Source: Tupaia tana
Lineage: Eukaryota; Chordata; Mammalia; Scandentia; Tupaiidae
Direction: 5' to 3'
NCBI GenBank assembly: GCA_026018925.1
Contig: JAKSZU010000026.1
Span: 19,707,127 to 19,771,126, forward strand
Length of the DNA: 64,000 bases
Of this stretch, positions 519-36,144 are shown in pieces. The first letter of the stretch is position 1. Every line of letters begins with the position of its first letter. Both the position numbers and the translations under genes were made by a program. The notes under the pieces are model-generated. The model saw nothing but the letters and a program-made list of their open reading frames with translations, made no database searches and was not told the DNA's origin.

Positions 519-556
519 ACCTCTTAATAAACACACATACAAAGAACTGAGAGGAG

Positions 557-2335: not shown

Positions 2336-4549
2336 GCGCAGAACGTTCAGCTGAGCAAAGAGATGACGCTCGCCAGCAACCGGAGTCTGGCGGAGGGGAA
2401 CCTGCTGTACCAGCCCCGCCTGGACGCCCTGAAGGCGCGCCTGGCGCAGAGGTACCGGGAGCTCCAGGCCCTCTTCGACGCCTACCAGATAAAGAAGACG
2501 CAGCTAGGTAACTCTGCAGGTGCTCTCGGGAGCAGAGGGGGAGGCCCGTTTCCGCGGTGCTGGGCTCCACGTGGCCGGCCGCGGTTGGGGTCCCGGGCCA
2601 GCGGCTTGCCTTCTCACTCCTCGCCCTCTCCCTGTCTCTCTGCGGAGCACACCTGCCCTGTAGCAAATTAGAAAATAAAAGATAAATAAAATCCAGTAAA
2701 TGGTAAGAAACGTCAGTCCACACGGCAGACCGTGCGCCGGATCACAGCACTCAGGAGGGCCAGGGACAGGCACGGCGGGGCCGAGGGCCTGAGGCCACAC
2801 CTGGGCCGACGCCGCGCCGAGGGCAGGGCACCTGGTGCTGATACGTGCCTGAGGCCACCTGGCCGGTCCCCCCAGGGCTGGCTCACTCGTGGTCTGTGCT
2901 TTCCCTCCCGGTGAGGGTGGGCGGCGGGCGGACGGTGGGCGTGCGGGTGTGAGGGTGGGCGGCGGGCGGACGGTGGGGGTGCGGGTGTGAGGGTGGGCGG
3001 CGGGCAGACGGTGGGCATGCGAGTGTGAGGGTGGGTGACGGGTGGACCGTGGGTGTGGGTGACAGGGGGACCATGGCATGGGTGACAGGGGGACCGTGGC
3101 ATGGGTGACAGGGGGACCGTGGCACGGGTGACAGGGGGACCGTGGGCGTGCCGTATGAGGGTGGGTGACAGGTGGACCGTGCGTGCAGGTCTGGAAAGCC
3201 CCGTCACGTGTGCCTCTTGCTCCCTCCAGATAAACAGCCGAGCAGCGCTTCCCTGGAGACCCTGCTGGCCCTCCTTCAAGCCGAAGGGGCCAAGATCGAG
3301 GAAGACACTGAGGTAGAGACAGCCTCCACCCGGTGCCCGGGCACACTCCTGGGACTTGGGCCATGTGGGCAGTCAGCGGGCCCAGCCTCCGGGGCAGTGA
3401 GCACGGTGGCCTGGCCTGCATGCTGGGGATGGGCCGGCCAGGGGCCCGGGGGCTGCAGGGGGCCAGTGCTGGGCCAGTGCGGGCGTGCGCACCACGCTCG
3501 GCATCCACGCCGGCCCGTGGTGCCAGTGGCGGAGCTGCTGTCTGCAGTGCTGAGTCAGCTGTGGCCACAGCTTGCCAGCACAGCCAGCTGAGACCTTGGG
3601 CTTGAGCCTCACAGGTGACAAGGACATGAGTCAGGTTGATTGTCATGTAGGGTGGCGGTGTGGTGCCCAGACCAGGCCCCGCTGGTCTGATTGGCGGTGC
3701 CCTGGTGGCGCAAGCAAACATCTGCTCCTGCGAACCTGGGCGAGTCTGTCGGGGTGTGGCCAGGCTGAAAGCAAGGCACTCCGAGGGCCAGACCTGGGAG
3801 GGACACGCGGGGGCTCCTGGGCCGGAAGCCCAGCTCCTGCAGGCCTGCAGCCCGTCCAGGCAAGGACGGCGGCTACACCTCGCAGCGGCCCTTCCATCAG
3901 CCTGAGCCCACCCCTCCAGGGCTGCAGCGCTGAGCAGGTGGCGGGTGGGGGGGGTGCAGCTGGGGTGCCGCCCTCTCTCTGGGCCCTGGTCGGCTGCAAA
4001 GGGAGCGTTCTCCTGTCGGCCGGCCAGCCCTTGACGAGGTTTCTCCTGCCTCCTCAGAACATGGCCGAGAAGTTTCTGGACGGAGAGCTCCCCCTAGATT
4101 CCTTCATCGACACGTACCAGAGCCAGCGAAAGCTGGCGCACATGCGCAGGGTGAAGATCGAGAAGCTGCAGGAGATGGTGCTGAAGGGGCAGAGACTCCC
4201 GCAGGCCCCGGCTCCGCTGCCGTCTAGGGCGCCTGAGGCAGCACCCACGGCCGCCGCCCCGTACCCCGCCCCGGAGGCCAGCGGGCCCCCCTCTGTCATG
4301 CCTCGGCGCATCCCTCCACCGCCACCCCCGGTGCCTGCAGGACGCTTAGCCACCCCGTTCACTGCCGCCATGGGCTCCGGACAGGCCGCTCCGTACCCGG
4401 GATTACAGTGCCCGCCCCTGCCTCCCCGCGTGGGGCTCCCCGCACAGCAAGGACTCGCTGCACCCTTCGTGTCCCCATACCCGCCGGCGCTCCCCCAGCG
4501 ACCCCCACCCCGGCTGCCTCCGCACCAGCCAGGCTTCATCCTCCAGTGA
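2336..4549 (+). CDS. VPS37B: VPS37B exons 2-4 (ESCRT-I subunit), separated from exon 1
   Basis: VPS37B is a subunit of ESCRT-I, with TSG101, VPS28 and an MVB12-type protein, and helps sort ubiquitinated cargo at endosomes. Three coding exons are visible: 2336-2507 (begins AQNVQLSKEM, ends in phase 1), 3230-3312, and 4058-4549 with the TGA stop at 4547-4549. All are flanked by AG acceptors and GT donors. The exon 3/4 part (SSASLETLLALLQAEGAKIE, then MAEKFLDGELPLDSF) is the Mod(r) domain that binds TSG101/VPS28. The C-terminal tail is proline-rich, with a run of prolines near 4311-4331, and ends PPHQPGFILQ. No initiator exon precedes exon 2 here. Exon 1 lies on the opposite strand at 28119-28229. 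Exon lengths 111+172+83+492 give 285 residues, the length known for human VPS37B. The reading frame is intact and the identification is near certain from residue similarity. Confidence 0.96.
2911..3186. repeat. Minisatellite in VPS37B intron 2 (38-bp then 23-bp units)
   Basis: Three to four 38-bp units (GTGAGGGTGGGCGGCGGGCG...) are followed by three to four 23-bp units (GACAGGGGGACCGTGGCATG + GGT), then a degenerate return to the first type. The array is strongly G-rich on + and ends about 45 bp before exon 3 at 3230. The rest of this intron is plain GC-rich sequence. Confidence 0.9.
3313..4057. other. VPS37B intron 3, no feature recognised
   Basis: GC-rich intron with GT at 3313 and AG at 4056-4057. 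No repeat or second gene is seen. Confidence 0.6.
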
Positions 4550-6090
4550 GCCAGCCCGCGTCCCCCCGTCCCGGGAGCCGCCTCCGCCCTCCGGCCCGGA
4601 CTCTAGGCCGCGAGATCTGACGCTGTGCGCAGGCTCTGGTGCCCTGGCTGGTGCGTCCGTCCTCCTAGAACTGTAGGTCAGTGGAGAGTAGAAGTAGGAA
4701 CCCAGGCGTGGTACCCAGGTCTGTCGGCCTGGCGTCCCCAGTGTCCCCACGCCCTGGTGTCAGCTGATCTGCGTCCTCGGTGATTTCTGCGTGCTGTAGC
4801 AGTGACGAACTCGTGCGTTTGGGAGAAAAGCCTCTCCCCATTCCCGTCCAGAGTCGTGGTCCTCCCATCGCAGCTCTCTGTAACAAGCATGGTTAGTTGT
4901 TTCCATTTTATTTTCAAGAGGTAGTTCTGAAGACCCCCGCCTCCCCGGAGGGTCTGCGAGCCCTCGGGCACCCGTGGCCAGACTAGGCCAGGCTAGGAGG
5001 CGTCGCTGTTCACTGAATCCAGGGGGGCAGGTCGCCCCAGTCCCCCAGTCCCCTGGCCTGGCCGTGTCCGGGGCTGGAGAGCTGCGGCCCGGTGTGAGCT
5101 GGACTTGCATGGGCACCTGTGTCCCCGGCTCCGCCGCCGCCGCCTCCCTCCAGGGCCCCTGAGGGTTTCTGGGTGGAAACTCTCACCCGACGTTTTTACT
5201 GTGTGTGTAACTTTCCTGTTTTACATTGGGAAAGAACTTTTTTGACACAAGACCATTCAGGGAAACTTTGTTTAAAAAAAAAAAAAAAAAAAAAAGGAAA
5301 AAAAAGGCAATGTCATTTTGTGTGAATTGAAGTGCGCGGAGAAGCGCGTTTCCTTGTCCCCCGTGTGCGAGCAGCACCGGTCACACCGCGTGCCCGCGCC
5401 GTGCCTTAGCTTCCCTGGCGCCAGGGCACCCATGCCACCCAGGGCGGCCCGCTAGGTGGGGGAGCCCGGCCACCTGAGCCGGGGTGCTCTTTGCCATCGT
5501 CACCGGCCCCTGGTGGCCGGGCTCAAGCCAGGTGGGCTCGGAGTGGGCAGTCGGGAGGGCTTGGAGAAAGCCCGCCCGCCGTGTCCCAGTACGTGCCAGC
5601 CCCCATCCGCTCCCTGCATCCCACGTCCGTGGCCATGTGTGCTCAGTGCCATGTGTGCTCAGCCTCCGGACCCGGCCTCCCGGAACCAGCTGCCAGTTGG
5701 CTGTTGCCCAGGGTGACAGAATCGAGGCAGAGTGGAAACAGGGTCCGTCCCAGCAGTTCGTGGGCGAGGCTGCCAACCTTTGTCCTCAGATACCGTACAC
5801 TCCTCTCCTGGACTTGAACTCTGCTGTGTCCTCACTGGTTTTTTTAAAGAAAACAAAGCCGTCTAGGACTGTTCGCTGCCGTGCCCGTCCTGTACATCTT
5901 CCAGTGGTGCCGCCCACCCGGGATACCTTTGCCGCTGCCAGCCGGCTCTCGGGAACCCGTGGCCACGGGAGCTCTGTGTTGTCACAAAGAGGCCGCGAGG
6001 CTGGCCTCGCCATCGCTGTCCAGGGCCACGTCTGGCGCTGTGGGTGTAAAGCCGTAGGACCTTTGTAATAAATAGAGAATTATTAATAAC
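4550..6090 (+). other. VPS37B: VPS37B 3' untranslated region
   Basis: The sequence between the VPS37B stop and the first good poly(A) signal carries no coding similarity. It has a run of about 20 A followed by a second A-rich run at about 5273-5307. No SINE is seen in it. I assign it as 3' UTR because AATAAA occurs at 6067-6072 followed by a GT-rich downstream element; transcript data would be needed to fix the end. Confidence 0.7.
6067..6072 (+). terminator. VPS37B: VPS37B polyadenylation signal
   Basis: Canonical AATAAA, followed about 45 bases later by a GT-rich stretch (GTTCATGGTGTGTCTGGTTC near 6118-6137), the normal layout of a mammalian cleavage site. Cleavage would be expected near 6085-6095. 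Confidence 0.65.
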
Positions 6091-6432
6091 CATCCCGTTG
6101 CTCATTTTCCTGGAGGTGTTCATGGTGTGTCTGGTTCTAGAACATCAGTGATCTGTATTACTGGAGGGGCAGAGTGGGCGTGTGCCCTCTTTATTTTTAA
6201 CTCACTGCGGCAGGGGAAGGGGCACCCTGAGCAGTGCCCCACCAGGCCACGATCCCCTGGCCCCTGCTCCCTGCCCTCCGGCTCCTCTGAATCTTGGGCA
6301 CGCTGCGGACGTGGCTGCAGGCAACCCAGGGAACCGGACTGAGGGCGGCCACGTGGCTTCCAACGCTGCAGTTCAGCTTGTCACAGCTGCACTAGTTGCG
6401 GGCCGGTGGCTGTTCTCAAAGTTAGAGACAAA

Positions 6433-7216
6433 GGGGGCCAGCTGTTAGCATTCGCGTCCCAGACCCGATGGCTTAAAACTCACGCCGGGCGCGTGTGCGT
6501 GCGTGCCCAAGATCCCGAGAGGAGAATGGAGGAGAAGGGATTGCGGTGTGGCCATCCCCCCTGGGGGGTGATTTCTTGCTTTCTGTCTCTATGTCTCTGT
6601 CTGTCTGGCGAGCGCATGCACCCTATAGTGAAAACCTCTCCAAAAAAAGAGTTAAGAGACAAACCACCGACAGGAGGACAGCAGCAGGGCCCTGCCTCGT
6701 CCTTTTCGTAGAGATTTTTGCCATAGATCACGTGCACTCGGTGGTAACGCAACGCAAGAAATCGCCCCCAGGACGGATGGCCACACTGCAGTCCCTTCTC
6801 CATCTCCTCTTGGGATTCTGAGTGCGTGCACGCTTGCATCCTGGCTGAGTGTCAAGCCACCAGGTCCGAGACTCAACCGTAGTTGGCCACGTGTGACTCC
6901 AGGGCCAGCACTTTGCTGCCTGCTGTCCTCGTTCCTCATCATCAGGGTCAGAAACAACAGGAATCGGGACCAGCAGTTAGCGTAATGGCTATGTCGCTGG
7001 ACTCCCACGTAGTCGACTGCGGTTCGCGTCCCGGATCCAGTGGCTTAAACTCACGCCAGGTACGTGTGCATGCGTGCCCAAGATCCCAAAAGGAGAACGT
7101 TGGAGAAGGGATTGCAGCGTGGCCATCCCCCTTGGGGGGTGATTTCTCGCTTTCTGTCTGGCAAGCGCATGCGCCCTATAGCAAAAACCTCTAAAAAAAA
7201 AAGGAACAGCAGGAAT
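6433..7216. repeat. Three SINEs between VPS37B and HIP1R
   Basis: Long-class copies: 6433-6650 (+, head shortened), 6703-6892 (-), and a clean copy at 6966-7204 (+). The last is flanked by a near-perfect 12-bp duplication, AACAACAGGAAT at 6953-6964 and AACAGCAGGAAT at 7205-7216. It retains pol III-type A (TAGCGTAATGG) and B (GGTTCGCGTCC) boxes. Confidence 0.85.
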
Positions 7217-8345: not shown

Positions 8346-8357
8346 GTGGGGGTGGGG

Positions 8358-8738: not shown

Positions 8739-9069
8739 CGTCCTCTAACACGCACCAGGGCTGTGTGTGTCCACGGTAGTTGGGAGCTCGGTAGCCACCG
8801 GCCGTGACCACAGGCCACCCCGCCTCATCCTGACACATGGCCTCAGACGCGACTGTGTGGGGCTGGGGGAGCCTTGGGGAGGGAGGCCGAGGGTGGCCTC
8901 AGCTCCTACTCCAGGACTGTCCCAGAGACAGCCAGGCACCTCCGGGCAACACCGGCCCGTGATGCCAGTGCTCGGGGCCATCTGTGGAGACCATGGGGCT
9001 CCGTGCCCAGCGATCCCGTGTCCCGGGAGAAAGGAAGAGCCGGACACAGCCCCTACCTGGGGGCACAGC

Positions 9070-12699: not shown

Positions 12700-12913
12700 C
12701 TGCGTGGATGGACGGGGTGAGGCTGTGGTCATGGGGGCAGCAGGAAGACCCTAACACCGGACCATCCCTTCCCGCCTCCCACCAAGCCAAGGCGAGCCCA
12801 GCACCCCCAGTTACGAAGAAGAGGGAGCAGGCGGCCCCCACCGGGTGTGTGACCGCAGCACGGGCAGGGCCAGTGTGCTGGGTGGGAGCAGGAGCAGAGG
12901 GCTCGGGGCCTTG

Positions 12914-13032
12914 CCTTTTTTGGGGGAGGCTTTTGCTACAGGGCACATGCGCTCTCCAGAAAGACAGAGACAGAGAGACAGAAAGCGAGAAATCATCCCC
13001 TGGGGGGGATGGCCACGCCGCAATCCCTTCTC
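12914..13032 (-). repeat. SINE truncated by the assembly gap
   Basis: The long-class SINE on - starts at its tail (GGAGGCTTTTGCTACAGGGC) and stops in the body (CAATCCCTTCTC) exactly where the N begin. Its tRNA head is missing. It lies in a HIP1R intron. Confidence 0.9.
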
Positions 13033-13132
13033 NNNNNNNNNNNNNNNNNNNNNNNNNNNNNNNNNNNNNNNNNNNNNNNNNNNNNNNNNNNNNNNNNNNN
13101 NNNNNNNNNNNNNNNNNNNNNNNNNNNNNNNN
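13033..13132. other. Assembly gap of exactly 100 N
   Basis: One hundred consecutive N, the usual placeholder for a gap of unknown size between contigs. The left edge breaks off inside a SINE on the - strand; the right edge is non-repeat sequence. HIP1R is truncated here, and VPS37B pieces in opposite orientation lie on either side. Confidence 0.98.
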
Positions 13133-13948
13133 AAGAACATTATGAAACTGTCCTAAAACACAGCAGTCCCGGGGGCTGTGCGAAACCACCTCCAAGGCGC
13201 CAGCCTCCTCAGGGAGGAAACTGACCAGCTGCTCATCAAGTCACCGAAACACCAGCTCAACCATGGGACGGCACACCTCCGAGTGCCAGCCAAGAGCTGT
13301 TCCCGATCGGGGACGGGCCGTCACGTCCTTCCTCGGGAAGGAGCAGCCCGCGGCACCTGGACGCCGACGACCCCGTCCACGTGCAGCTGGCTGGCATCTA
13401 AACGCACTCTGGCACTCGCCTGCAGTGCAGGTGACCACGGAAACGCACAAGGCTGGGCCTGAAGACAGACGGGCCGGGCCAGAGTCCAGGGGCCTCAGGG
13501 ACGCACGACCTGAAGGTTGTCTTGTTCTGCAGGTACGACGCGCCAGGGCTGGGGCTGGCTCTTCCTAGAAAACGAACTCCTGCTACTCAGAGGGCAGGCG
13601 AGTCCTCCCTACTTCTTGGACTTACTCAGTGAACAGGTGGGGAGCAGTTCTGCCGACGGCACACGCCACACTGCTCTACGAATACCACTGGCCTGAGGGT
13701 GACGCGGGACGCTGCAGGGCAGACGGGAGGGCTGAGGGGCAGAAGGCAGGCTGGGAGGTCCACACTGACCACGGTGTTAATGCCTCTGTTCCTAGTCACC
13801 CTCAGCCCTACCCCAGACCTGCTGAAACGAGCCTGGGGGCTGAGGCCAGAGAGCCGAGGCAGACGCCCTCCCAGCCCACACGCAGGCTCACGGAGCAGAC
13901 TGGCCAGGTGCACACACCCACGCGCGTAGAGGCTTAACCTTTTCCCTT
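13133..13948. other. First sequence right of the gap, no gene recognised
   Basis: No HIP1R exon is found on either strand. Open frames are short and unlike known proteins. In the corrected order this would be VPS37B intron 1. Confidence 0.5.
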
Positions 13949-14208
13949 TTTTTTTTTTGGAGAGGTTTTTGCTATAAGGCATGTGCACTTGCCAGAGAGA
14001 CAGAGAGAGAGACAGAAAGCGAGAAATCACCCCCCCCCCCGGGGGGATGGCCACGTGAGCAATCCCTTCTCCTCCATTCTCCTCTCGGGATCTTGGGCAT
14101 GCACGCACACACACTGGGCTTGAGTTCAGGCCATCGGGTCCGGGACACGAACCGCAGTCGACTACATGGGAGTCCAGCGACATAGCCATTACGCTAACTG
14201 CTGGGCCC
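13949..14208 (-). repeat. Long-class SINE
   Basis: Full-length - copy from the poly-T/GGAGAGGTTTTTGCTATA end to GCCATTACGCTAACTGCTGG, with an extended C10/G6 run at the central inverted repeat near 14031-14047. Confidence 0.9.
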
Positions 14209-15285
14209 TCAAAAAATTTTTTTGAAAGAATTATTTTATTGAACTTTACGTGTGCCCAGTTTTTTACTTAAGGTAAAGGTTTTTTCTTACGAGAATGGAT
14301 CTGTTAGCTCAAATTCCGAAAGCTCTGTTTTTGCACAGACCACATCCTTTCACGGAGCGAGAAGGCAGACACCAGACAAGAAACGAGGAGGAAGAAGCCT
14401 GGAATCCAATCCCCCACTCCAGGCCACACCTCACTCATCGGGAGGTTTTTATCTAATGAATCACTTCACGTTAACTCTGCCCAGAGCACTCGGCTTCCAG
14501 TTCTGCTGCTGCTGCTGCTTTTTAGATTTGCCAGAGGGTATGTACACTCCCTGGAGAGAGAGAGCGAGATCGAGGGGAGAGAGAGAGAGAGAGAGAGCGC
14601 GGAGAGAGAGCGAGAGCGAGTGAGAATGCACCCCCGTGGGACAAGATCACTCCGAAATTCTTCTCCTTGATTTCTCTCTCCTCTCGGGATTTGGGGGTCC
14701 CTGTGCCAGGCAAGTTTTCCAAGCCTCCAGGTCCAGGACTCCAACCACACCGCCAGCCCTGTGAGGCCCAAGCCCCGTAGCCACCAGGCCGCGGCTGGCC
14801 TGCTTCAGTTTTCACAGACACAACTCTCGCCCCTGCCGTGGCATCTAATGAGCCTGCGCATGACTCTAAGGGGACCAGGATGAGCCCGTGTGGGGACAAA
14901 CCCGATGCCCTCGGTCCTGCAGCCGCTGCAGAGTGGGAGCGGAACACCCAGACGCCTGCTCGAGACCCGGGGCGGGGAGCCCAGCGCCCTTCGTGGGGAC
15001 GGGCCGCAGGACCAGAACGCCACATCAAGTGAGAGGGGCTCAATCGGTGGCCCCTTCCGGTAATTTCAAGGTCAACCCCCCCCCCAAGCAGCCAATGGAG
15101 ACAGGATTTCTAAATTCTTATCAGCGGTTTCTGGCGGGACTGACAATCAAAGCATTCATTTGTTTCCTAAGAGTTTAGGGTTTCCCCCCTCCTATTTCCT
15201 TTTAACCACACTTTCAAGAAATTCGTATATGAGAATTTGTCAGACTCGTCTTTACACAGGTACAGACTAAGAAAATGTCTCCCAT
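14209..15285. repeat. GA-rich SINE relic plus unique sequence
   Basis: From about 14520 to 14790 there is a - tRNA-like SINE with a (GA)n tract (14555-14625) and a decayed head ending near CACCAGGCCGCGGCTGGCC. The remainder is unique sequence with no recognised gene. Confidence 0.55.
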
Positions 15286-15562
15286 GGGGCCAGCAGGTAG
15301 CATAGCGGTTAAGAAGCTGGACTCCCACGTGGTTGGCCACAGTTTGGGTCTGGAATCGGTGGCTCGAAACTCACACCAGGCGTGTGTGCATGTGTGTGCA
15401 TGTGTGTGCACGTGCACCCAAAATCCCAAGAGAATGGAGAAGGGACTACGGCATGGCCATCCCCATTGGGGGGTGATTTCTCACTTTCTGTCTCTCTGTC
15501 TCTCTGTCTCTCCGGTGAGCACACAAGCCCTATAGCAAAAAAATTTCTCCAAGAAAAAAAAA
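15286..15562 (+). repeat. Long-class SINE
   Basis: GGGGCCAGCAGGTAGCATAG head, TG-rich middle, CCATCCCCATTGGGGGGTGA inverted-repeat region and an A-rich end. Confidence 0.9.
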
Positions 15563-15612
15563 AGTCTCTCTATTATGGATCCTGGACTTAAGGTTATTAA
15601 GACTCTATCTTG

Positions 15613-15712
15613 GGGTGGCCAGCAGGTGGCGTGGTGGTTAAGGCACTGGATCCCCAGGGCCGACAACCTTCTATTTCCCCTAGGTGAGCACGTGTGCCCC
15701 CTAGCAAATTAA

Positions 15713-15743
<31 letters not shown>

Positions 15744-16061
15744 AATTAAATAATTCTTTTTTTTTTCTTTTTTTGGAGAGGTTTTTTTGCTGTAGGGCGC
15801 GTGCGCTCGCCAGACAGACAGAGAGAGACAGAGAGACAGAAAGCGAGAAATCACCCCCCAGGGGGGATGGCCACGACGCAATCCCTTGTCCTCCATTCTC
15901 CTCTCGGGATCTCGGGCACATGCGCCCGGCGTGAGTTTAAGCCGCCGGGTCCGGGACTCGAACCGCGGTCGACTACGTGGGAGTCCAGCGACATAGCCAT
16001 TATGCTAACTGCTGGTTCCCAAAATTAAATAATTCTTAAAAAAAAAAAAAAAGACTATCTT
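15613..16061. repeat. Short-class SINE (+) split by a long-class SINE (-)
   Basis: The outer short-class element runs 15613-15758 and resumes at 16021. The inner - copy fills about 15759-16020 and is flanked by a perfect 17-bp duplication, AAAATTAAATAATTCTT at 15742-15758 and 16021-16037. The outer element is itself flanked by AAGACTCTATCTT (near 15599) and AAGACTATCTT (16051-16061). The inner one is therefore the later insertion. Confidence 0.92.
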
Positions 16062-16282
16062 GGGGCCAGCAGGTAGCACGGCGGCTAACGCAGCCGGATC
16101 CCACCAGGCCGACTGTGTAGTTGGGGCCTTGGACCTGGCTGTTTGAAAAACATGTCGAATGCGTGTGCACGCGGGTTCCAAATCCTGAGAGAACAGAGGA
16201 GAAGGGATCGCAGCGTGGCCATCCCTTCTAGGGGGTGACTTCTCTGACCCTGCCCCTCCAGCGGGCACACATGCCATAGGGT
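16062..16282 (+). repeat. Long-class SINE
   Basis: GGGGCCAGCAGGTAGCACGG head of the GATCCCACC variant, ending near CCATAGGGTATAAC. Confidence 0.8.
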
Positions 16283-16419
16283 ATAACTAAAAACAAAACA
16301 AAAAGAACCTATATATTTTGATAGTTTTGCTTTTATGTTAAAACATACCATGACAGGCACGTTCCAACACCTGACTCACAATTGCGTTTAATGCGTAAAA
16401 TTTACCCTCAAGAGGCTGC

Positions 16420-16549
16420 AACTCCGCATCAGCGTATCCCCGCAACCCCGTCCCGCATCTGCGTATCCCCGCAACCCCACATCAGCGTATCCCCGCAACT
16501 CCACATCAGCTTATCCCCATAACTCCGCATCAGCGTATCCCTGTAACTC
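16420..16549. repeat. Short tandem array of about 24-29 bp
   Basis: About five degenerate copies of a unit like ACTCCGCATCAGCGTATCCC. It lies about 165 bp before the large minisatellite but shares no sequence with it. Confidence 0.8.
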
Positions 16550-16713
16550 ACTCAGTATAAAGGTGAAAATGCGGTTCCAATAATGAGGGTTCTTTTGTCC
16601 CCCTCACCCCCAGTCCATGGGTAGAGAGAGATTAGCCCAAGAATCAGTCACTATAGATTTTTCTACTTAAACTTGTCACACACACACAGCACGCGATTAG
16701 ATCTCATGTCGGG

Positions 16714-17749
16714 AAGCAGACACCCCACCTCCAGGGCTGCCTAGATGCTCAGCAGACACCCTACCTAGACTGCCTAGATGCTCAGCAGACACCCCACCTC
16801 CAGGGCTGCCTAGATGCTCAGCAGACACCTTACCTCCAGGGCTGCCTAGATGCTCAGCAGACACCCTACCTAGACTGCCTAGATGCTCAGCAGACACCCC
16901 ACCTCCAGGGCTGCCTAGATGCCCAGCAGACACCCTACCTAGACTGCCTAGATGCTCAGCAGACACCTTACCTCCAGGGCTGCCTAGATGCTCAGCAGAC
17001 ACCCTACCTAGACTGCCTAGATGCTCAGCAGACACCCTACCTAGACTGCCTAGATGCTCAGCAGACACCCTACCTAGACTGCCTAGATGCTCAGCAGACA
17101 CCCCACCTCCAGGGCTGCCTAGATGCTCAGCAGACACCCTACCTAGACTGCCTAGATGCTCAGCAGACACCCCACCTCCAGGGCTGCCTAGATGCTCAGC
17201 AGACACCTTACCTCCAGGGCTGCCTAGATGCTCAGCAGACACCCTACCTAGACTGCCTAGATGCTCAGCAGACACCCTACCTAGACTGCCTAGATGCTCA
17301 GCAGACACCCTACCTAGACTGCCTAGATGCTCAGCAGACACCCCACCTCCAGGGCTGCCTAGATGCTCAGCAAACACCCCACCTCCAGGGCTGCCTAGAT
17401 GCTCAGCAGACACCCTACCTAGACTGCCTAGATGCTCAGCAGACACCCTACCTAGACTGCCCAGATGCTCAGCAGACACCCCACCTCCAGGGCTGCCTAG
17501 ATGCTCAGCAGACACCCTACATCCAGGGCTGCCTAGATGCTCAGCAGACACCCTACATCCAGGGCTGCCTAGATGCTCAGCAGACACCCTACCTAGACTG
17601 CCTAGATGCTCAGCAGACACCCTACCTAGACTGCCTAGATGCTCAGCAGACACCCTACCTAGACTGCCTAGATGCTCAGCAGACACCCTACCTAGACTGC
17701 CTAGATGCTCAGCAGACACCCTACCTAGACTGCCTAGATGCTCAGCAGA
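16714..17749. repeat. Minisatellite, mixed 33-bp and 36-bp units
   Basis: About 30 head-to-tail copies. The 33-bp unit contains CTGCCTAGATGCTCAGCAGA then CACCCTACCTAGA; the 36-bp unit replaces the last part with CACCCCACCTCCAGGG. In the - strand reading 29 complete units can be counted, 16 of 33 bp and 13 of 36 bp, in irregular order. Both lengths are multiples of three, so a 340-codon frame stays open on - (17719-16697), encoding repeats of VSAEHLGSLGR and VSAEHLGSPGGG. One + frame is also free of stops. It lies in what should be VPS37B intron 1. I treat it as non-coding tandem repeat. Confidence 0.95.
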
Positions 17750-17902
17750 AACACGTTGGCTGCTGGTCGCCGTGAGACTGACTTAGACAGAAGTGAAAGG
17801 TGTTAACTGCGTTTTAATTGACGGCAGCAGAAAGCACACACCCAAACGCCCAGTAAAAGGAAGCGGTCCGTAAACGATGGTGACCGTGGCTGCTACACAC
17901 CA

Positions 17903-18376
17903 TGCCAGCCAGCCACAGGGGCACGGCTGTAACGCGATGCTCTACAGCGCTGAAGCACAACCACAGTTCTGGTCCCGAACCCGGCAGCCTGAAAATCACG
18001 CATGCTCATGTACATGGTACCCAAAACCTTGAGAGGAGACTGGGTAAGGAGGCACTGTGGCCTAGCCATCTTCCCTGGGGGGTGGATTTCTCTTCCCTCT
18101 CTCTGGTAAGCACACACACCCTATAGAGAGGCCTGAGGAGGTGATGGCGGAGACCAGCAGATGGCATAATGGATTCCCATACAGTAGACCATGGTTCGAG
18201 TCCCAGGCCTGGCGGTTCAAAACTCACGCCAGGCACGTGTGTGCGCACACCCATGATCCCGAGAAGAGAATGAAGGAGAAAGGATTGCAGTGTGCTATCC
18301 CTCCTGAGGGATTATTTCCCCCTTTCTGTCTCTCTGGCAAGCGAACGCACAGAAATCTCTCCACAAAAAAAGAAAG
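17903..18376 (+). repeat. Two diverged long-class SINEs in tandem
   Basis: Copies at about 17903-18128 and 18150-18376, both + with recognisable body and CCTGGGGGGTG or CCTGAGGGATT centres. Confidence 0.75.
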
Positions 18377-18543
18377 AAAAGAAAGAAAGGGTGACTGTGG
18401 AGAGCATGGGTGTAAATGCCAGCAACTGCAAGCGGGGGAGGACGGCGGGGTGGGTGGTGGAGAGTGGGTGCGAGGTGCCAGGGCAGGGAACATGTTCAGA
18501 CTGAAAAGTGTCAAGTTCCCTGTTGAAAAAAAAAACAAAAACA

Positions 18544-18772
18544 AGGACCGGCAGATGGAATAATGGTTCAAATCCTGGACCCAGTAGCTTAAAACCCTCA
18601 GCGGGTGCATGCGCGTGCATGCCCAAGATCCTGAGAGGAGAATGGAAGAGAAGGGACTGCGGCTTGGCCATCCCCCCAAGGACTGATTTCTCACTTCCTG
18701 TCTTTATCTTTCTCTGTCTCTCTGGTGAACGAACATGGCCTATAGCAAAAAATCTCTCTCTCTCTAAAAAAA
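18544..18772 (+). repeat. Long-class SINE with head deletion
   Basis: The head lacks the GCTGGACTCCCACGTGGTC segment (AATAATGGTTCAAATCCTGG). The body and tail are otherwise normal. Confidence 0.8.
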
Positions 18773-20499
18773 AGAATGAACAAAATCTCCTCTATATAGA
18801 AGCATCCCAACGCAAGGAAAAACAGACAGAAAATATAAAACATTCTCTTAACAGCATTTATTTCTGGGTAGTGGTATTATGTGATTCTATTTTTCTTTAT
18901 AGTTCTGTTTTCCAAATTTTCCACAACAAACACGTAAAACCATAAAATGTAATGTAGAAATATCTTTAAAGGTTTGACCAGCTGGGATCAGAAATAAATG
19001 ATACTGTAACATCGATGTCCCCGCCTTAACCAGAGTAGTGAGACCACTCTGGGAGCCTTGCAGGCCTCAGGAAGGCCAAGCACCAGGCCCCGCTGCAGGC
19101 TGGGAAACACCAGTCCTCGGGCTACACAGCAGATGGACCCGTTTATCCTCTAAATAAGCATTTGCCAAAGAATGCCCCAGGGCCCCCAGCCCGGGTCTCC
19201 AGAGTGTCAGCAATACTTTATGCAAATCCCTTCCTGGAGCCTCCCCTCACCCCACTGTAGGACAGAAACAAAGCAAAATAAAACCCACTTCTAACTGGCA
19301 GGTCCCACATTTACCAAGGAATCCTTTTTAATGCCGTCACCATTAACAGCCACAGAATTGGCTCCAAGGAAACCGATCTTGAATCACACGGCCCAAACCG
19401 CGGTACTATCAACAGAAAGTTTCCACTGATTCAGCTCCTGGGGTTGCCAGGCGCGGTGTGAGACGGTTCAGAAATACTACCTTCTGTCTCCTCCGGGAAG
19501 GATGGTATTATTAATACTCCCGTTTTAAAGTGAGGAAACTGATGTTTGGGGAAGACGAAGTACTTGCCCCCAAGGCTCCTAGCAACTCCTGCCTTGACCG
19601 TCCTGACAGTTGGTTTGTGTGTGGCTTTTATAACGTCGTCCTCTCCTTTCTCCGGCATGTGCTTACTCCTGGGTGATGTGAGCGGCTCCGCTGGTTCTCC
19701 CTGCACCCCTCTAACATGCCCCTGTGCATTACTGTCTGGAAAGCAGGCTCCGGCGGGCCAGCGCGGCGATGTGGCAGTGTGTCCCCGGTCAGCGACGGCG
19801 CTGAAGACCGCCTGACCACACTGACCCGGCAGCCACCTCCTGACCCATGTTGCTCCTGGCCACAAGGACCATCTACATAAACCACGTGTGACCAAGGACA
19901 GCCCCCCTCGCTTGGACACTCGGGCGGCCCCCCAGGGTAGAGGATCAAGCCCAAGCTCCTTAACACAGCGGCAGAGGCCATCTGGTTCCTGGAGAGGCCT
20001 CACCCCGTCTGGGCCGGGTCCCTCCCAGTGCCTGCAAGATTCCTGTGACACAGTCTCTCTCCTTCCCCAGAGCCTCGGAGCTCCCGCTGCTCAGCCCCCA
20101 CGCCTGGGGCCTTCTCTCATTACCTGCTTTCCCTTCTCTCTCACTACCCGGCCCTCCCAGTGACCACTCAGCTCCAGGAAGCCCCCTGGCCACCCCCCTC
20201 CTCCAGGCTTGCTGGGTGTCTCCTGATGGGGCACGCAGGCGCCCTACGTGTCCCGGCTGCACCTTTGTGGCATGGCCTTTACACACCCACTCGCTCCTCA
20301 GAGATGAAAACGATGTGGCTTTCTGGTTTCACAACCCTACGGGAAAGGCTGTAAACGAACAAACTTCCTGGGGCCTCACCCTCCGGGACGCGGGACCGCA
20401 CATATGTACAGAGGAGAGTCTTCAAAGAGCTTGTGGAGGGTGCATGCTATGATGAACTTTCAAGGATTTTAAAACCTTCTGCACCTAAAGAAACTCATG
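18773..20499. other. Mostly unique sequence with a MIR relic
   Basis: A MIR-like core on + at about 19504-19600 is recognisable (GTTTTAAAGTGAGGAAACTG, then ACTTGCCCCCAAGGCTC). The rest is unique. I see no exon with similarity to a known protein. Confidence 0.45.
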
Positions 20500-20773
20500 C
20501 TTTACTCTTATTTTCTAAGAGGTTTTGCTACAGGGCACGTGCACTTGCCAGAAAAACAGAGAGAGAGACAGAAAGCGAGAAATCACCCCCAGGGGGGATG
20601 GCCACGCCGCAATCCTTCTCCTCCATTCTCCTCTCGGGATCTTGGGCACGCACGCACACGCGCCGGCATGTGTTTAAGCCACTGGGTGCAGGACACAAAC
20701 CACGGTCGGCTACATGGGAGTCCAGCAACATAGCCATTACACCAACTACTGGTCCCACTTTACTCTTACTTTT
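20500..20773 (-). repeat. Long-class SINE with target duplication
   Basis: A - copy flanked by CTTTACTCTTATTTT (20500-20514) and CTTTACTCTTACTTT (20758-20772). Confidence 0.85.
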
Positions 20774-20787
20774 TTAAAAAAAAAAAT

Positions 20788-21534
20788 TTATTTATTTATT
20801 TATTTATTCATTCATTCCTTCATTTTTTAAACTTGACCAGAGAGAAAGAGGGGGGGGGGGGGAGTGAGAAAGCAAGCCACCAGGTCCAGGATTCGAACTG
20901 TGGTCGGCCATGTGGGAGTGTCCAACGCCCTAACCACCATGCCACCTGCTGGTCCCAACTCTTACTTTTTTTTTTTTAATGAACTTTTAAAGTTTATTTC
21001 TTCTGAGAGAGATTCACATAGACCTACAGCAGGGTCTTCACACCACAATATATCCCCTCTGCCAGCCGATATCAGGCAGGTGCGTATCTGGTGTGTACAG
21101 GGAGACCCGGGGACACGGACCCAGGGCCTTCCCACATGGACCCAGCATCACAGAGCACTGTGTTACCACTGTGCCACGCGGCCGACCGCAAACTTTTTTT
21201 TTTTAAGAATTATTTTATTGGGCATGGTGATTGGGGTGCTGGATTCCCACATGGCTGACCATGGTTCAAAGTCTTGGACCTGGCAGCTTATTCTCTCACT
21301 TTCTCTCTCTCTCCTCTCGTCAAATGAAAAAATAATAATAACGAATAAAATTAAATAAATATTTTCAAAAAGAATATTTAAGTTATTATTATCACTTTTT
21401 TTTTAAATTTGACAAAAGAGAAAGAAGGAGAAAAAGTGAGAAAGTGAGAAAACCAAGCCACCAGGTCCAGGATTTGAACCGTGGTTGGCCATGTGGGAGT
21501 CCAGTTCCTTAACCACCACACCACCTGCCAGCCC
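20788..21534. repeat. Cluster of four tRNA-like SINEs
   Basis: 20788-20956 short class (-, with G-run); about 20980-21190 a different tRNA-like family (-, CACTGTGCCACGCGGCCGAC end); 21217-21362 short class (+, 5' truncated); 21397-21534 short class (-). Confidence 0.75.
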
Positions 21535-23067
21535 CATCACAAACTTTATCAAGTACCCTCACACAACCCTGAGGTACCATTAGTTAATAAAAGGATTGAT
21601 TTCAAAGAAAACTGAACTATGACATGCTTGAACTATCACAGGTCATTCAAATGTGGACCGCAGGCTTGAACTCTTTGATACTGTTGGCTCTCCCCTACAG
21701 GACACTGTGATGTAACTGGAGACCACAAAGCCAGGCCCACCTCGCCACTCTGAGACCACGAAGAGGCCGGCCTCGCCCCTCTCCCTCCTCCCAGGAAGAA
21801 AGTGCGGGGCGGGAAGAGCAGGAGCCACTACACTCCTGTCTCAGCACGCCCTGAACCCCGTGGTCGGCCTTCCAGATAATCCTGCAGCGCGTACCTGGCA
21901 CAGATCCCCATAGCAACATTCTGCTACAAATACTGTAATAAAAGCCACGTAAGCAACCAGGCTGGCAGTCACTCCTTAGCTCAAGGACGCATGCACCCGC
22001 ACAGGACAGGGCCTGCGGTCCGCTCAGTTACGCTCGGAGCGGCTGGACTGGAAAACCGTGGCCGGTCTCGGGCTAGTTTCTCCCCATCCTCCCAGGTCCC
22101 CGCCACTCCCAACGGCCTCTCAAACTGCTAAATGCCCCTTGAGGTCGGCGAGCTCTAGGAGGACGCTGGCTCTATTCCGCATCTCCAAGCAGGCTGTTCC
22201 CGGAGCCCCAGAACCCCGCTTTCACTGCCTGCCTGCCAGACATCGCCATGTCAGCGCCCTGCCCACCCTCGCTCAGCCGCCCCACTCCTCCGGGCCTGCC
22301 TCTCCTGGCTCAGGTGGCTCTGGCCCGTCCTCCTTCTTCCTGCCCTTGCAGGGATCGTCACTCGCCTGGCAGCACTGTCTGGGCACATCGAGAGGGGCCG
22401 TGGGCACGAAAGTCCGGGACCGACACAACAGACAAGTCCACAGGAGGGTCTACCTCGAGGGAGGGACGAGGTCTGAGACCGAGAAGGCGGGGAGAGGGGA
22501 GGCCAGGCGGAGCCCTGGATGGCTGGGGAGGCAGGGGGTGGCCAGCCGGGGCTCCGCTGCTCCCTCCCAGAACCCCTTCACCTCCTCCGTGTCTGCCTCT
22601 TCTCCCCTTCCTAAGCCTCTTCACGCCTGCCCGGCCACAGGCCGCCGAGCCGACTGCGCCTCTGCTCTTCCAGAGCGAGCGGACGCTGCCTGCCTCCACC
22701 TCGCCCCGGGCTCACCCTGCTCACCCTGCCTCGGCCCTCTGCCCGATTTCCTGTCCCATCCCCACAGAGGACAGCCGCACCTGCTGGAAGTGGGCGGGGC
22801 TCGCTGGTCGGACCGGCCCCCTCCCGTGCTGGGCTCCTGCTGTCACCTCCTGGTTTGCTCTCTGCCCATCAGTCGCCAGCCAGGGCGGCGCAGAGACCAC
22901 GCGACACTCCTCAACGCGGAGGCCACACGGGAAGGTCCTGGGCTTGCTTCCCGTGACCCCGAGAGCTCCCTCAGCATGCCTGCCTGAGGCTGGGGTGGGC
23001 TGCAGAGGAAGAGGCTGCTGGGGTGTCTGTCTCCTCTTCTCCATCCTCCCTCTCATGGAGATCCATT
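21535..23067. other. GC-rich unique stretch, no gene supported
   Basis: Contains overlapping + frames (22058-22987 and 22248-23288). Their translations are Pro/Ser/Arg-rich, the second runs into the SINE at 23068, and no known domain is recognised. It would be VPS37B intron 1 in the corrected order. Confidence 0.5.
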
Positions 23068-23700
23068 CCTTTTTTTGGAGAGGTTTTTGCTATAGGGCAC
23101 GTGTGCTCACCAGACAGAGACAGACAGAAAGCGAGAAATCAACCCCCAGGGGGATGGCCACGCCACAAGCCCTTCTCCTCCATTCTCCTCTCGGGATCTT
23201 GGGCACGCGCACACTCGCCCGGCGTGAGTTTAAGTTACCAGGTCTGGGGCTCGACCACGGTCGACTACGTGGGAGTCCAGCGACATAGCCATTACGCCAA
23301 CTGCTGGTCCCAGAAGCAGTAAACTTTGAAAGATCCTACGTGGAGAAATACACACGGGCCAGCCCACGGCACGGTGGCGAGGGCCGCTGGACTCCACACA
23401 GCTCACAGCGCAGACCTGGTGGCTTGAGAGACACCGCGGGCACGTGTGCGTGGGAGCCCGAACTCTCCAGAGGAGACTGGAGAAGAGACTGCTGCGTGGG
23501 CGTGCCCGAGGGGTGCTTTCACACTCTACCTCCCCCACCCTGCCAGCCAACAATCCCTTCTCCTCCACTCTCCTCTCGGGACCTTGGGCACGTGCGGGCA
23601 CACCCGCCCAGCGTGAGTTCAAGCCACTGGGCCCGGGACGCGAACCGCAGTTGACTACATGGGAGTCCAGCGACATAGCCGCACGCTAACTGCTGGTCCC
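23068..23700. repeat. Three SINEs
   Basis: 23068-23312 long class (-, complete); about 23354-23530 diverged long class (+); 23550-23700 5' part of a long-class copy (-, tail missing). Confidence 0.8.
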
Positions 23701-23829
23701 GTGGTAACTTCCTTTCTCGCGGCTCACGCACCTATCAAAGTCCACCCCTGCTAGAAACGCAGTCTACTGAGCGCAACTTTGCTCCTGGTTTTCAATGCCG
23801 TTTATAGTGCCCATTTGGCTTTCTTATTC

Positions 23830-23990
23830 TCTTTCTAAAAACTTGTGGTAAAATCTACGTAACGTGTAATTCACCATGTGACCATTTCCAAGCGTGCGAG
23901 CCATGGCGTCCAGGACGCCCACACTCCTGGCCTGTCCCCACCTCCGCCTGCAGGACTCCTCTTCCCAGTCGGGCACTGTGGCCAGTCCGG
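23830..23990 (+). repeat. L1 3'-end fragment (old)
   Basis: Resembles the conserved L1 3' region (TTGTGGTAAAATCTACGTAA, then CACCATGTGACCATTTCCAA), diverged. Confidence 0.5.
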
Positions 23991-26522
23991 ATTACTCCCG
24001 GCTGCAGCATGGGGATTACGCCCTGCTGTTTCCGCCCTCCTCCCGGGAGGCCTGGGACTGACACAGGATCCCCGTTCGGGCACGCGGCGCACGGCTCCTC
24101 GGCCCCGGCGTGACTACCCTCCGAGCCCGCTCCTGCGAGGCCGCGGCTAAGCCTAAGCGGCTTACAGACTCACCTCACCTGACCCCGCCCCTGTGCCGTA
24201 GGTTACTGTTATCACCCCTTTATTTCCTAGGAGGAAGCAGCAGCTGTAAGGACTGAGCGCTTGCCAGAGGTCACACTGCTGGTACGGACAGCCAGCCCTG
24301 ACGCCAACCACTGCGCCCCACCACCCCGTACTTCAGTAAAAGCCGAAGGGCAATCTGGAGGAAGGAGAGTGGACCAAGTGTCACCTAAGCCAGTCCAACT
24401 CCGAAAAGCTCTTCTTAAAGGGAGGTGGGCATCCCCTACCGACCGCTTCCTCGGTGCCACGCACGCCTTCACCTGCTAGGACACCCGGCCTGGTGGGGAC
24501 CTCTGCGCAGACGCCGCTCCCACCTCAGCCTTCAGTGGGACCAAAGCACGGACATTTAGTAACTTAAACCAGGGCTCACAACCCTTAGCTATGTTCTTGT
24601 CATCAAATCTTATGCCTCCTTTAAAGCGAGAAGATAAAATGAGATGAAGCTGCATTTCAGAAGCTCTTCCTGGCCACCATCATTTATTACTATTATTATT
24701 TAATAATAGAAACTTAGTCTCTCACGTGTCTAGACGTTGGGGCAGTTATTTCTGACTCAGGAGATCAATGGGCCCGTGGAAGAGAAGCTGAAAATACAAA
24801 GTCAAAGCTTTCCCACAAACGGGGGCGACGGGACACCACGGGGAGAAAAACTCCAGCGGTTCCACGCTCGAGAGTTCAAACCCGCTTCTACCGCCCACGT
24901 CCTGCCAGCACCGTGAGTTCAGAGCCGCTGCTGGCCCCACAGCAAGGTCAGTACATTTTAATGAGCCATTATGATTCACAAGGCCCAGCGCCCCACACAC
25001 ACAAATCACACCCGAACACGCCTTAGGGAAACAGCTTCGTCCAAACCCGAGGCTTCCCGTTCCGCCCAGCAAGCCTTTCAGACCTGCGGGATTTTTGCAT
25101 ACGAGCATTTTCGCTCACCACAGGGACAAAGATCCTGAATGTGAATCCTCGGTGGCACCATCAGTTCGCAGGACCCCATCCGATGGCCTCAAAGCACTCT
25201 GGAGAAGGGACCTAAGAGGTCCTGTGGGGTTGCTTCATCCCCCAAACCACAGTTCCTTTTAAGGGAGTGCCCGCGAGTCCGACAGGGTTAACGTGGACAG
25301 AGAAAGGCGCATTCCACTGCCATGTAAAAATAACCTTAAATACAAATAAAAACCCGTGCCCGTGAAACGTCAGCCCGCAGCAGAGGAAGACAGTAAGATC
25401 GGTCAAGGACAGACTGATTCAGGAACTGCACATCGGACAGAAGGAACTGAAAAAACCTAACACGCACGCTCAGAAGATGAGAATGTCTACACTGCCAACA
25501 TCTGAACATCTTCTAGTGCTAGAACTGCACAGCGCAGTGAAAACAATGTAGCTCTGCAAACCGCAGCAGCGTTCAGGACCTCGCCACACTTCCCACTGCC
25601 ACAAAGTATCCCCTCCGGCTTGCAGAAGCCTCACTCTACAATTTCAAACACTTCCCTCTGCCAATTAAACCAAACAAAAAAAGGCCCTGGGTTTAGGTTA
25701 GGAGACTCCAGGCCGTGCGAGGCTTGTTCCACTTACCAGCTCAGCCTGGGCCTTGGAGACAGGATCATTTGGACCAGAGAACAGTACAATGTTGCCTATG
25801 TTAATAGCAAATCAAGATTTACTTAAAATTCTTCAAATGAGACCCTATTAACTTGTCAGGACGAACGACAAGTGATTTTGAATCACTGTCCTGACTATTG
25901 ACACGAGCCCGGATAGGGTTTGACAGGCATGTGTCACCTGACCCTCGCACCCACCCCAGGAGACCCTGTCATCCTAACAGATGCTCAGAGAGGCCAACCG
26001 CCCTGCCGGCAGACACAGAGCTGGGGCGCAGCCAGGCCCATCTGCTGTGTATGTGATCCCAAAGCCTGAAAGTTCTTCAACACCCTGCCGTAACGTCCTG
26101 TTTGGTCAAGGGTAGGCAGTTCAAACTATGTCCTCTCACTGTGTCTCGCCACCACCCCCCCAACCGACACACAACTTGGGCAGGTGAGTCGGAAGGTCCG
26201 AAATTTGGGTGGCTCATGTTACACCATTTATTTTAGAAACACACCGCCCAGGACCAGGGCAACAGGATCTGCAAAGTGTGCCCCTTGGCAGGGTGAGCTG
26301 ACCAAGGTTATGTTGTTTTTTAGAGTCAGTTTCCTTGTTTTATAAGCTCTACACCCAGAAAGCAAACTCCAGCTGGGCAATTTCACTCGAATTATCTGGT
26401 CCCACCGGTCTCTCCTCGCTATTCCTCGGAGGGTGCTCTGCTACGAAGACCACTTGTACTTAAAGACAAAAGCCCAAAACCCCTCTACATTTATCTGCTT
26501 TTCCCTTTAAGGAAAAACCCCA
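23991..26522. other. Repeat-poor unique stretch with MIR relics
   Basis: MIR-like cores occur near 24195-24320 (CCAGAGGTCACACTGCTGG) and 25975-26045. Most of 24.5-26.4 kb lacks SINEs. Open frames on either strand are short and without known domains. Confidence 0.45.
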
Positions 26523-26695
26523 GGTTCGGGGCGTAGTGGCCGAAGGCGCTGGAACTCCCACATGGGGGATAACGGTTCGAGTCCCAGACCTGGCGATTTG
26601 CCTTCTCACTCTCTCTCTCTCTCACTCTGCTCCTCTCTGGTCAAATAAATAAATAAATAAAGTTAAATAAAATAATTCTTAAAAAAAAAAAAAAA
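26523..26695 (+). repeat. Short-class SINE
   Basis: Head with AACGGTTCGAGTCCCAGACC, (CT)n, TCTGGTCAAATAAATAAATA and a poly-A end. Confidence 0.85.
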
Positions 26696-28118
26696 ACCCA
26701 AAGACCCAGGTTCTTAGGTAGAGGAGCCGAGTGACGCTGTCCCTAACAGCCTCAGAGTCACAACCACCCTGACCCTTCCACAATCCTCTACTCCACTAAA
26801 AGGAGTTGATTTCTATTAATGGTTCACCAGTACAGTGACAGGACTCCCTTCACCTACACCAAAATAACTCCTAGGTGGTGTTCCCCACTAGAAAATAGAC
26901 CTACTGCTTTAATACTGAACCAGAGAGGCCCTGCTGACAACCAACAAGGGTCTCCCAGCAACTGAGAAGCAGGGACAGAGCAAAGACTCTTTCCTTGGAA
27001 ACACGTAACTCTCATTCAGTCGGGAAAGAAGGAGTTTGTCACTTATTATTCCCTGACATGCAAAGCACCACACGGAGACCATAAATGGGGTGCACCGCAT
27101 CTCAGAGCACGCCGTGTCAAGTGACGGCCGGGAATACAAGGGGTGTATTAATGGAGAGCCCGAGCCGGCTGGCCACAGTGGGCTCTCTGTGGCTCTGCAC
27201 AATGATCCGTTGAGGGTTTTCCAGGGACTGTGAGTGTGCAGCCTGCACACCAGCCCCTTTGCAGGGGGCCGGCTGGGAGAGACAGCCGAGAGCCCCCTCC
27301 CAGCCCGGCGTGGGAAGGCTTAGCCCGGGAGACAAAGGCGGAGAGTGGGAGGTGGGCTGGGGAGCTGGCACAGCCTGGTCACCCGCCCGAGGGGACCAGA
27401 CTTTCAGAGTCCAAACCGTGGGCGACGTGGGGCAAGGAGGACGCCCACACTGCCAATCGGCGAGGGCAGTCGGTGAGGGCTGGGAGCAGACAAACCACGT
27501 CCGAGACACGAGGCCGCTGCGGAGCGGGCAGGGCTCCCCGGGGCTGTGGGTGGGGGCAGGCGGGCAGCCCCCCTCCAGGATCTCCCACAAACAGCCCAGA
27601 ACTGCGCGGCCCAGGGGGTGAGCCCAGGGGGTGAGCCCGGGCAGTGGCTGCCACACTCCAATCCCCGCACGCCCTCCTCCAGGAAGGGGCGCAACTTCTA
27701 CAGAAAGGGGTCCTGCTGCCAGCTCGGCCCACGGGCCCAGGAGCAGGGCCCCAGGGGAGCTGCGGCGGCCGGCGGGGCCCCCCAGCACTCGGGACCCCTC
27801 GGCTACACGGGCCCTTCAACCTCACCCGGTCACCCCCGCGCTCCAACCTCGGGGGCCCCGACCCTCGAGCCCCTCTGAGCGGCTCCCGACTCAGCTCCGC
27901 CCGGAGGCCCGCAAGCCGTCCCGGGACTCGCACTCTCCAGCCCCCCAGAGCTGACTCGCTCCCCGACGCCCCGACCCGGCCCGGCCCGAACGTGCCAGCC
28001 GCTCTAGCCCTCGGCTCCCGCAGACCTCCGCCCGCCGAGCCGATCCCGAGCGCCGCCGGGTCCACATCCCCTTCCCAGACGCTGATCCGGCGGCCCTCGG
28101 CCCGGCCGCGGCGCTCAC
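26696..28118. other. VPS37B: VPS37B intron 1 next to exon 1
   Basis: Unique sequence that becomes CpG-rich from about 27.65 kb toward the exon 1 donor at 28118. The long open frames on both strands in the CpG island are composition effects. Confidence 0.55.
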
Positions 28119-28229
28119 CTCCTCCATGCCCTGCACCATGGCGGCCAGCTGGCCCTCGTCCTCCAGCAGCTCGTTGAGCTGCACCAGCGACAGCCCCGCG
28201 AACCGGGCTTCGCTCCCGGCGCCCGCCAT
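28119..28229 (-). CDS. VPS37B: VPS37B exon 1 (start codon and first 37 residues)
   Basis: This first coding exon reads from the ATG at 28229-28227 through 37 codons (starts MAGAGSEARFAGLSLVQLNE, ends MVQGMEE) to a GTGAGC donor starting at 28118. It ends in phase 0, matching the phase-0 start of exon 2 at 2336 on the other strand. The start has G at -3 and G at +4, a good Kozak context, and sits in a CpG island. The N-terminal residues match the known mammalian VPS37B start almost exactly. There is no exon 2 downstream on this strand between here and the gap at 13132. The exon is therefore the 5' end of a gene whose remainder is assembled in inverted orientation. Confidence 0.95.
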
Positions 28230-31819: not shown

Positions 31820-31839
31820 TGCTTCTGTCTTTGTTTTTG

Positions 31840-36140: not shown

Positions 36141-36144
36141 GAGC

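What the first reader, a model, noticed from the sequence alone, without database searches (positions are those of the whole stretch)
2336..28229. VPS37B is split onto opposite strands across an assembly gap
Exon 1 is on - at 28119-28229; exons 2-4 are on + at 2336-4549. Phases join exactly and the total is 285 codons plus stop, so these are pieces of one intact gene. No intron can connect opposite strands. If the whole contig left of the gap is reversed, VPS37B reads exon 1 to 4 on one strand and the order HIP1R(+), VPS37B(-), ABCB9(-) known from human is restored. The best explanation is a contig scaffolded backwards. Any annotation pipeline will report two partial VPS37B models here.
Basis: partly seen in the sequence, partly recalled or inferred. 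Interest (0 to 1): 0.9.

Follow-up and report, generated by a model that had tools for sequence, protein, structure and literature searches.

The report
Misassembled scaffold cuts VPS37B and HIP1R
Two ordinary mammalian genes look broken here because pieces of this draft genome were joined in the wrong order and direction, a mistake that also splits the antibody lambda locus, so this is an assembly error and not new biology.

Summary
VPS37B exon 1 is on - at 28119-28229 and exons 2-4 are on + at 2336-2507, 3230-3312 and 4058-4549; joined, they give 285 codons plus stop. A search of the whole assembly found exon 1 once. "A contig scaffolded backwards" is only partly right. The left contig (C) is 26,124 bp with 100-N gaps at both ends. 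Its left neighbour is an immunoglobulin lambda V array, not HIP1R. HIP1R's 5' exons lie at the extreme start of the same scaffold, 19.7 Mb away, running off its end. C holds residues 668-1056; residues 181-667 gave no HIP1R match. The IGLV array resumes at 24.82 Mb, with IGLC at 25.83-25.93 Mb, so about 5.1 Mb of 12q24-like sequence (C plus the ABCB9 block D) is wedged inside the IGL locus. The order that reunites VPS37B, HIP1R and IGL is: D reversed, C, X (scaffold start to IGLV), Y (IGLV-IGLC onward). P2X receptor genes fit it. Flipping C alone mends VPS37B but leaves HIP1R and IGL broken. An assembly artefact; reads and Hi-C were not available.

The parts
1..2335 (+). 3' part of VPS37B intron 1 as held on contig C (C begins 13,092 bp left of the window, at scaffold 19,694,035)
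   Evidence: GC of C's whole intron side 0.552 against 0.553 for 13133-28118; other genes were not searched for here
2336..2507 (+). VPS37B exon 2
3230..3312 (+). VPS37B exon 3
4058..4549 (+). VPS37B exon 4 with stop codon
9902..12712 (-). HIP1R 3' exons (residues 668-1056 of human P0227, including the I/LWEQ domain) and their introns; the gene is cut on its 5' side by the gap
12915..13032 (.). Interspersed repeat (SINE-like) in which contig C ends; the scaffold start, where HIP1R's 5' part breaks off, lies in the same repeat family
13033..13132 (.). Gap of exactly 100 N between contig C and block D; inferred false join
13133..28118 (-). 5' part of VPS37B intron 1 as held on block D; no match to HIP1R residues 1-670
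   Evidence: other genes were not searched for here
28119..28229 (-). VPS37B exon 1 with start codon; only copy found in the assembly
54095..60030 (-). ABCB9 3' exons (residues 582-766 of Tupaia P0332); the other exons continue right of the window to window-equivalent 78256

Best explanation
VPS37B and HIP1R are ordinary single genes cut by wrong joins in the scaffold. The scaffold is laid X - C - D - Y, where X = 1-19,693,934 (HIP1R 5' exons at its left end, IGLV at its right end), C = the 26,124-bp contig with HIP1R 3' exons and VPS37B exons 2-4, D = 19,720,259 to somewhere between 24.29 and 24.82 Mb (VPS37B exon 1, ABCB9, a P2X gene), and Y = the rest of IGLV, IGLC and onward to 30.1 Mb. 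The true order is D reversed - C - X - Y. Shown: the pieces of each gene, their strands and where they lie. Inferred: that the joins X|C, C|D and D|Y are false, and that the scaffolder inserted an end piece of the chromosome into the hard-to-assemble IGLV array.
For: VPS37B is complete only across C and D. HIP1R's 5' exons (1-192 of P0167, 20-180 of human P0227) lie at scaffold 16,626 down to 1,357 on -, running towards base 1, while residues 668-1056 of P0227 are on C, also on -; residues 181-669 matched only C275, at two places, which I read as the paralog HIP1, as expected if they fall in the C-X gap. IGLV hits, all + in these ranges, occupy 19.46-19.69 and 24.82-25.77 Mb with no scored hit in between; IGLC, also +, lies at 25.83-25.93 Mb. 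X|C and C|D are 100-N gaps and X's left end is the scaffold end. C ends, and X begins, inside the same repeat family. P2X genes: two on - at 1.18-1.25 Mb, one on + at 24.28 Mb, one on + at 28.17 Mb, which fits P2RX4/P2RX7, P2RX2 and P2RX6 in the proposed order (human positions recalled). Short contigs are the hardest to orient in Hi-C scaffolds (passages of PMC7672694; PMC6719893).
Against: No reads, Hi-C map or AGP file could be consulted. X was sampled only at its start, at the P2X pair and at its IGLV end, and D only near its left end and at one P2X gene, so further rearrangement inside them is possible. 13133-28118 and 1-2335 were not scanned for other genes. The ABCB9-to-P2RX2 distance is about 4.5 Mb here against nearly 10 Mb in human (recalled), so D is shorter than a plain copy of the human segment. 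A 5-Mb misplacement is large for Hi-C scaffolding, where big blocks are normally easy to place; how the scaffold was made is unknown. Contig ends show no overlap that would prove adjacency. The IGLV and HIP1R genome searches scored only part of their candidates (150 of 760, 44 of 305, 87 of 493).
Confidence: 0.93

Rival explanations
1. Only contig C is backwards; flipping it in place repairs the region.
For: Flipping C joins VPS37B exon 1 to exons 2-4 on one strand and turns HIP1R's 3' part to +.
Against: It leaves HIP1R's 5' exons at the far end of the scaffold and an IGLV array next to HIP1R's 3' part, and leaves IGLV split by about 5.1 Mb.
Confidence: 0.04
2. A real chromosomal rearrangement in this animal moved the segment with ABCB9 and the P2X gene into the IGL locus and broke HIP1R and VPS37B.
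For: The sequence as assembled says so; the exons themselves are intact, so a recent event cannot be excluded from sequence alone.
Against: The three breakpoints that could be read fall on 100-N gaps or on the scaffold end; HIP1R residues 181-667 were not found rather than moved; VPS37B has an intact frame; it would need several breaks and would disable two conserved genes and part of the lambda V array at once.
Confidence: 0.02
3. The gene really is split and the mRNA is made by trans-splicing of two opposite-strand transcripts.
For: Splice sites and phases are intact on both pieces.
Against: The split falls on an assembly gap, and HIP1R is split by the same contig.
Confidence: 0.01

Closest known systems
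Contig orientation and order errors in scaffolded draft genomes (HiC-Hiker, PMC7672694; SALSA2, PMC6719893; passages seen)
   Same: A short contig between fixed-size gaps is misplaced or turned; genes are cut at contig ends. Both papers' passages say that short contigs are hard to orient; [quoted passage not shown]
   Different: Here the misplaced unit is about 5.1 Mb, with a reversed block D, and lies inside an immunoglobulin V array; which scaffolding method was used is unknown.
The mammalian HIP1R - VPS37B - ABCB9 neighbourhood
   Same: The same three genes in the same relative orientation once D, C and X are rejoined.
   Different: In this assembly HIP1R is in two pieces 19.7 Mb apart with its middle not found, and VPS37B is on two strands.
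Immunoglobulin lambda locus (IGLV-IGLC; human 22q11, recalled)
   Same: An array of IGLV-like V exons on one strand, followed by IGLC copies on the same strand.
   Different: The array is interrupted by about 5.1 Mb of unrelated sequence as assembled.

Membership tests
VPS37B orthologue | Full-length open protein matching VPS37B end to end | tested here: met
   285 aa, 87% identity over 100% to P0001
VPS37B orthologue | Match to the solved VPS37B chain of ESCRT-I | tested here: met
   6vme_C, E 7.3e-37, residues 97-167
VPS37B orthologue | All exons on one strand in order | tested here: not met
   Exon 1 on -, exons 2-4 on + in this scaffold; met only after re-ordering contigs
Scaffolding misjoin | Breakpoints coincide with gaps or scaffold ends | tested here: met
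   For 3 of 4: X|C and C|D are 100-N gaps and X's left end is base 1 of the scaffold.
Scaffolding misjoin | Genes cut in complementary pieces that rejoin under one re-ordering | tested here: met
   VPS37B, HIP1R (middle not found) and the IGLV array all rejoin in D reversed - C - X - Y
Scaffolding misjoin | Read or Hi-C support contradicts the present order | not testable with these tools
   No reads held
Single contig scaffolded backwards | Flipping that contig alone restores the neighbouring genes | tested here: not met
   HIP1R stays split, IGLV stays split
Real chromosomal inversion or transposition | Breakpoints lie within continuous sequence | tested here: not met
   3 of 4 breakpoints are gaps or the scaffold end; the fourth was not read

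The most novel reading that the evidence does not exclude
This animal really carries a transposition of about 5 Mb of 12q24-like sequence into the middle of its immunoglobulin lambda V array, separating part of the IGLV genes from IGLC and breaking HIP1R and VPS37B.
Probability: 0.02. Interest if true: 0.8.

Novelty: not a real feature. Interest (0 to 1): 0.18.

Why it matters
Anyone who uses this assembly would report broken VPS37B and HIP1R, a false synteny break, and an IGL locus interrupted by 5 Mb; the last would mislead studies of antibody genes in this species. The case shows that a small cut gene inside one window can expose a misplacement of megabases, and that a flip that mends one gene can still leave the real error in place.

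Tried and rejected
Rejected: an alternative exon 1 left of exon 2 (none convincing). Rejected: HIP1R 5' exons right of the gap, which would have supported the present orientation. In the window the best hit of residues 1-670 had E 1.6 and of residues 1-300 alone E 0.16; over the 304 kb there was none at E 0.01 or below. The same kind of search found these exons at the scaffold start, which serves as a positive control. Rejected: sequence overlap between contig ends as proof of adjacency (none for any of six pairings; the matches between ends look like interspersed repeats). One search missed exon 1 with composition-adjusted statistics; rerun with other settings. No run of telomere repeats in the last 10 kb of the scaffold. 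Rfam (gathering thresholds) and tRNA scans found nothing. Pfam scans of the three - strand frames at 29000-49000 found nothing. The + strand of the window and 13133-28118 were not scanned for domains. Paper searches on the 12q-22q association gave nothing useful (passages of PMC1914331). A search on treeshrew Hi-C assemblies gave one paper, a marmoset genome (listing only); one on misorientation gave two (listing only); one with HIP1R, VPS37B and ABCB9 together gave five (listing only). An early notebook entry put D's end at 30.1 Mb; searches replaced that.
Full report
What is there. VPS37B is encoded in four coding exons, one on the - strand at 28119-28229 and three on the + strand at 2336-2507, 3230-3312 and 4058-4549. 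The acceptors are AG and the donors GT, the phases join, and the sum is 858 nt, 285 codons plus stop. That Tupaia record lacks exon 1, as do 8 more of the 68 hits aligned. Exon by exon, the median identity to hits P0001-P0068 is 0.89, 0.81, 0.93 and 0.83. Residues 97-167 match the solved VPS37B chain 6vme_C. The gap at 13033-13132 is 100 N.

The neighbours. HIP1R exons for residues 668-1056 of human P0227 lie on - at 12712 down to 9902, between VPS37B exon 4 and the gap. ABCB9 lies on - and its 766 residues are covered by 11 matched blocks from window-equivalent 78256 down to 54095. Residues 1-670 of HIP1R have no convincing match in the window (best E 1.6; 0.16 with residues 1-300 alone) nor, at E 0.01 or below, within 200 kb to its left and 40 kb to its right.

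The scaffold. The window is C386:19,707,127-19,771,126 of a 2.95-Gb assembly; C386 is 30,099,760 bp. Left of the window there is a 100-N gap at 19,693,935-19,694,034, so the contig C with VPS37B exons 2-4 and HIP1R's 3' end is only 26,124 bp (19,694,035-19,720,158), with 100-N gaps on both sides. The two contigs left of C carry immunoglobulin lambda V-like exons: 14 candidates in the 132-kb one (which holds three shorter N runs) and 8 in the 35-kb one by a motif scan, none in C or in the 50.9 kb of D scanned. One of them matches antibody light chains in the PDB, an entry named IGLV5-37 among them, and both of two tested match Pfam V-set. GC is 0.483 and 0.487 in these contigs, 0.552 in C's intron side and 0.553 in 13133-28118, which fits C and D being neighbours better than C and the IGLV contigs.

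Where the rest of HIP1R is. A search of the whole assembly with human HIP1R found its first exons at the very start of the same scaffold. Read closely, exon 1 is at 16626-16531 (residues 1-32 of P0167) and the following exons run to 1416-1357 (residue 180 of P0227, 192 of P0167), all on -, in order, towards base 1. A search with residues 181-669 found only two matches, on C275, where further HIP1R matches of 47-76% identity also lie; I take C275 to hold the paralog HIP1. So the middle of HIP1R is missing from the assembly or below detection, and it belongs between the right end of C and base 1. Both of those ends lie in copies of one interspersed repeat family, a natural place for an assembler to stop.

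The IGL locus is cut by the same block. IGLV-like hits on C386, all + in these ranges, occupy 19,461,119-19,690,540 and 24,823,895-25,771,021, with no scored hit between (150 of 760 candidates scored, so counts are lower bounds). IGLC copies, also +, some with stops, lie at 25,827,562-25,930,166. By this reading the roughly 5.1 Mb between the two V clusters, that is C and D, does not belong there.

An independent check. P2X receptor matches in this assembly fall into seven clusters, grouped by eye, four of them on C386: two on - at 1.18-1.25 Mb, one on + at 24.28 Mb, one on + at 28.17 Mb; the others are on C486 (two) and C231 (one) (all 64 candidates scored). Human has seven P2RX genes; P2RX7 and P2RX4 lie 1.6-1.7 Mb from HIP1R, P2RX2 near the end of 12q, and P2RX6 on 22q11 (recalled). 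So X runs from HIP1R towards P2RX4/7 and on to IGLV, and D runs from VPS37B through ABCB9 towards P2RX2, as expected if X and D meet at HIP1R-VPS37B. Distances do not agree closely: about 1.2 Mb here for the P2X pair, and about 4.5 Mb here against nearly 10 Mb in human (recalled) from ABCB9 to P2RX2. Which P2X gene is which was assigned by place, not by sequence.

The layout. The scaffold is X - C - D - Y. The order that makes VPS37B, HIP1R and the IGL array whole is D reversed - C - X - Y. Seen from X and Y, C has the right orientation and is in the wrong place; D is reversed and misplaced. Seen from D, both C and X are reversed.

Is it real or artefact? The breakpoints that could be read are two 100-N gaps and the scaffold end. 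The VPS37B frame is intact and no second copy of its exon 1 was found. A real event would need several breaks, at least three of them on gaps or the scaffold end, and would disable two conserved genes and part of the lambda V array. I put the artefact reading at 0.93 and a real rearrangement at 0.02. Published passages say that short contigs are hard to orient in Hi-C scaffolds and that inversions are common when input contigs are short (PMC7672694; PMC6719893; passages only). I do not know how this assembly was scaffolded, and a 5-Mb block is larger than the errors those passages stress.

These were counted by eye, the lists hold the best 120 hits each, the column gives the longest contig of a cluster, and the same contig does not prove adjacency.

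Noticed in passing
G000:C386:24,823,895-24,824,221 and 19,532,493-19,532,819: Two IGLV hits with identical score, identity and query range (residues 31-139); the one at 19.53 Mb is cut by a 64-N run. They may be one gene assembled twice (uncollapsed haplotypes) or a recent duplication.
   Followed up: no
G000:C353:41,061,783-41,194,250: Four pairs of IGLV-like hits in mirror image on opposite strands with near-equal scores, centred near 41,128,000: a large inverted duplication of lambda-like V genes outside the IGL scaffold, or another assembly artefact. Further V-like hits lie on C66, C260, C432, C629 and C786.
   Followed up: no
G000:C531:127,237,554-127,356,052: Two pairs of weaker V-like hits in mirror image on opposite strands with equal scores, perhaps a kappa V inverted duplication.
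   Followed up: no
G000:C386:19,697,943-19,699,339 (left of the window, in VPS37B intron 1 on contig C): A minisatellite with a repeated motif of about 11-12 codons, open over 447-462 codons in three frames; a gene finder could call a false gene there.
   Followed up: no
window 12915-13032: SINE-like repeat with 18 further matches in the window at 74-91% identity. Two of the contig ends read, C's right end and the scaffold start, lie in such copies; no repeat match touched the first bases right of the gap (13133-13300).
   Followed up: partly
window 2900-3190: GC-rich tandem repeats in VPS37B intron 2, seen by eye.
   Followed up: no
G000:C386:27,223,241-27,262,572: Isolated V-like hits on both strands and one IGLC-like hit on - about 1.3 Mb past the IGLC cluster, possibly surrogate light chain genes.
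   Followed up: no
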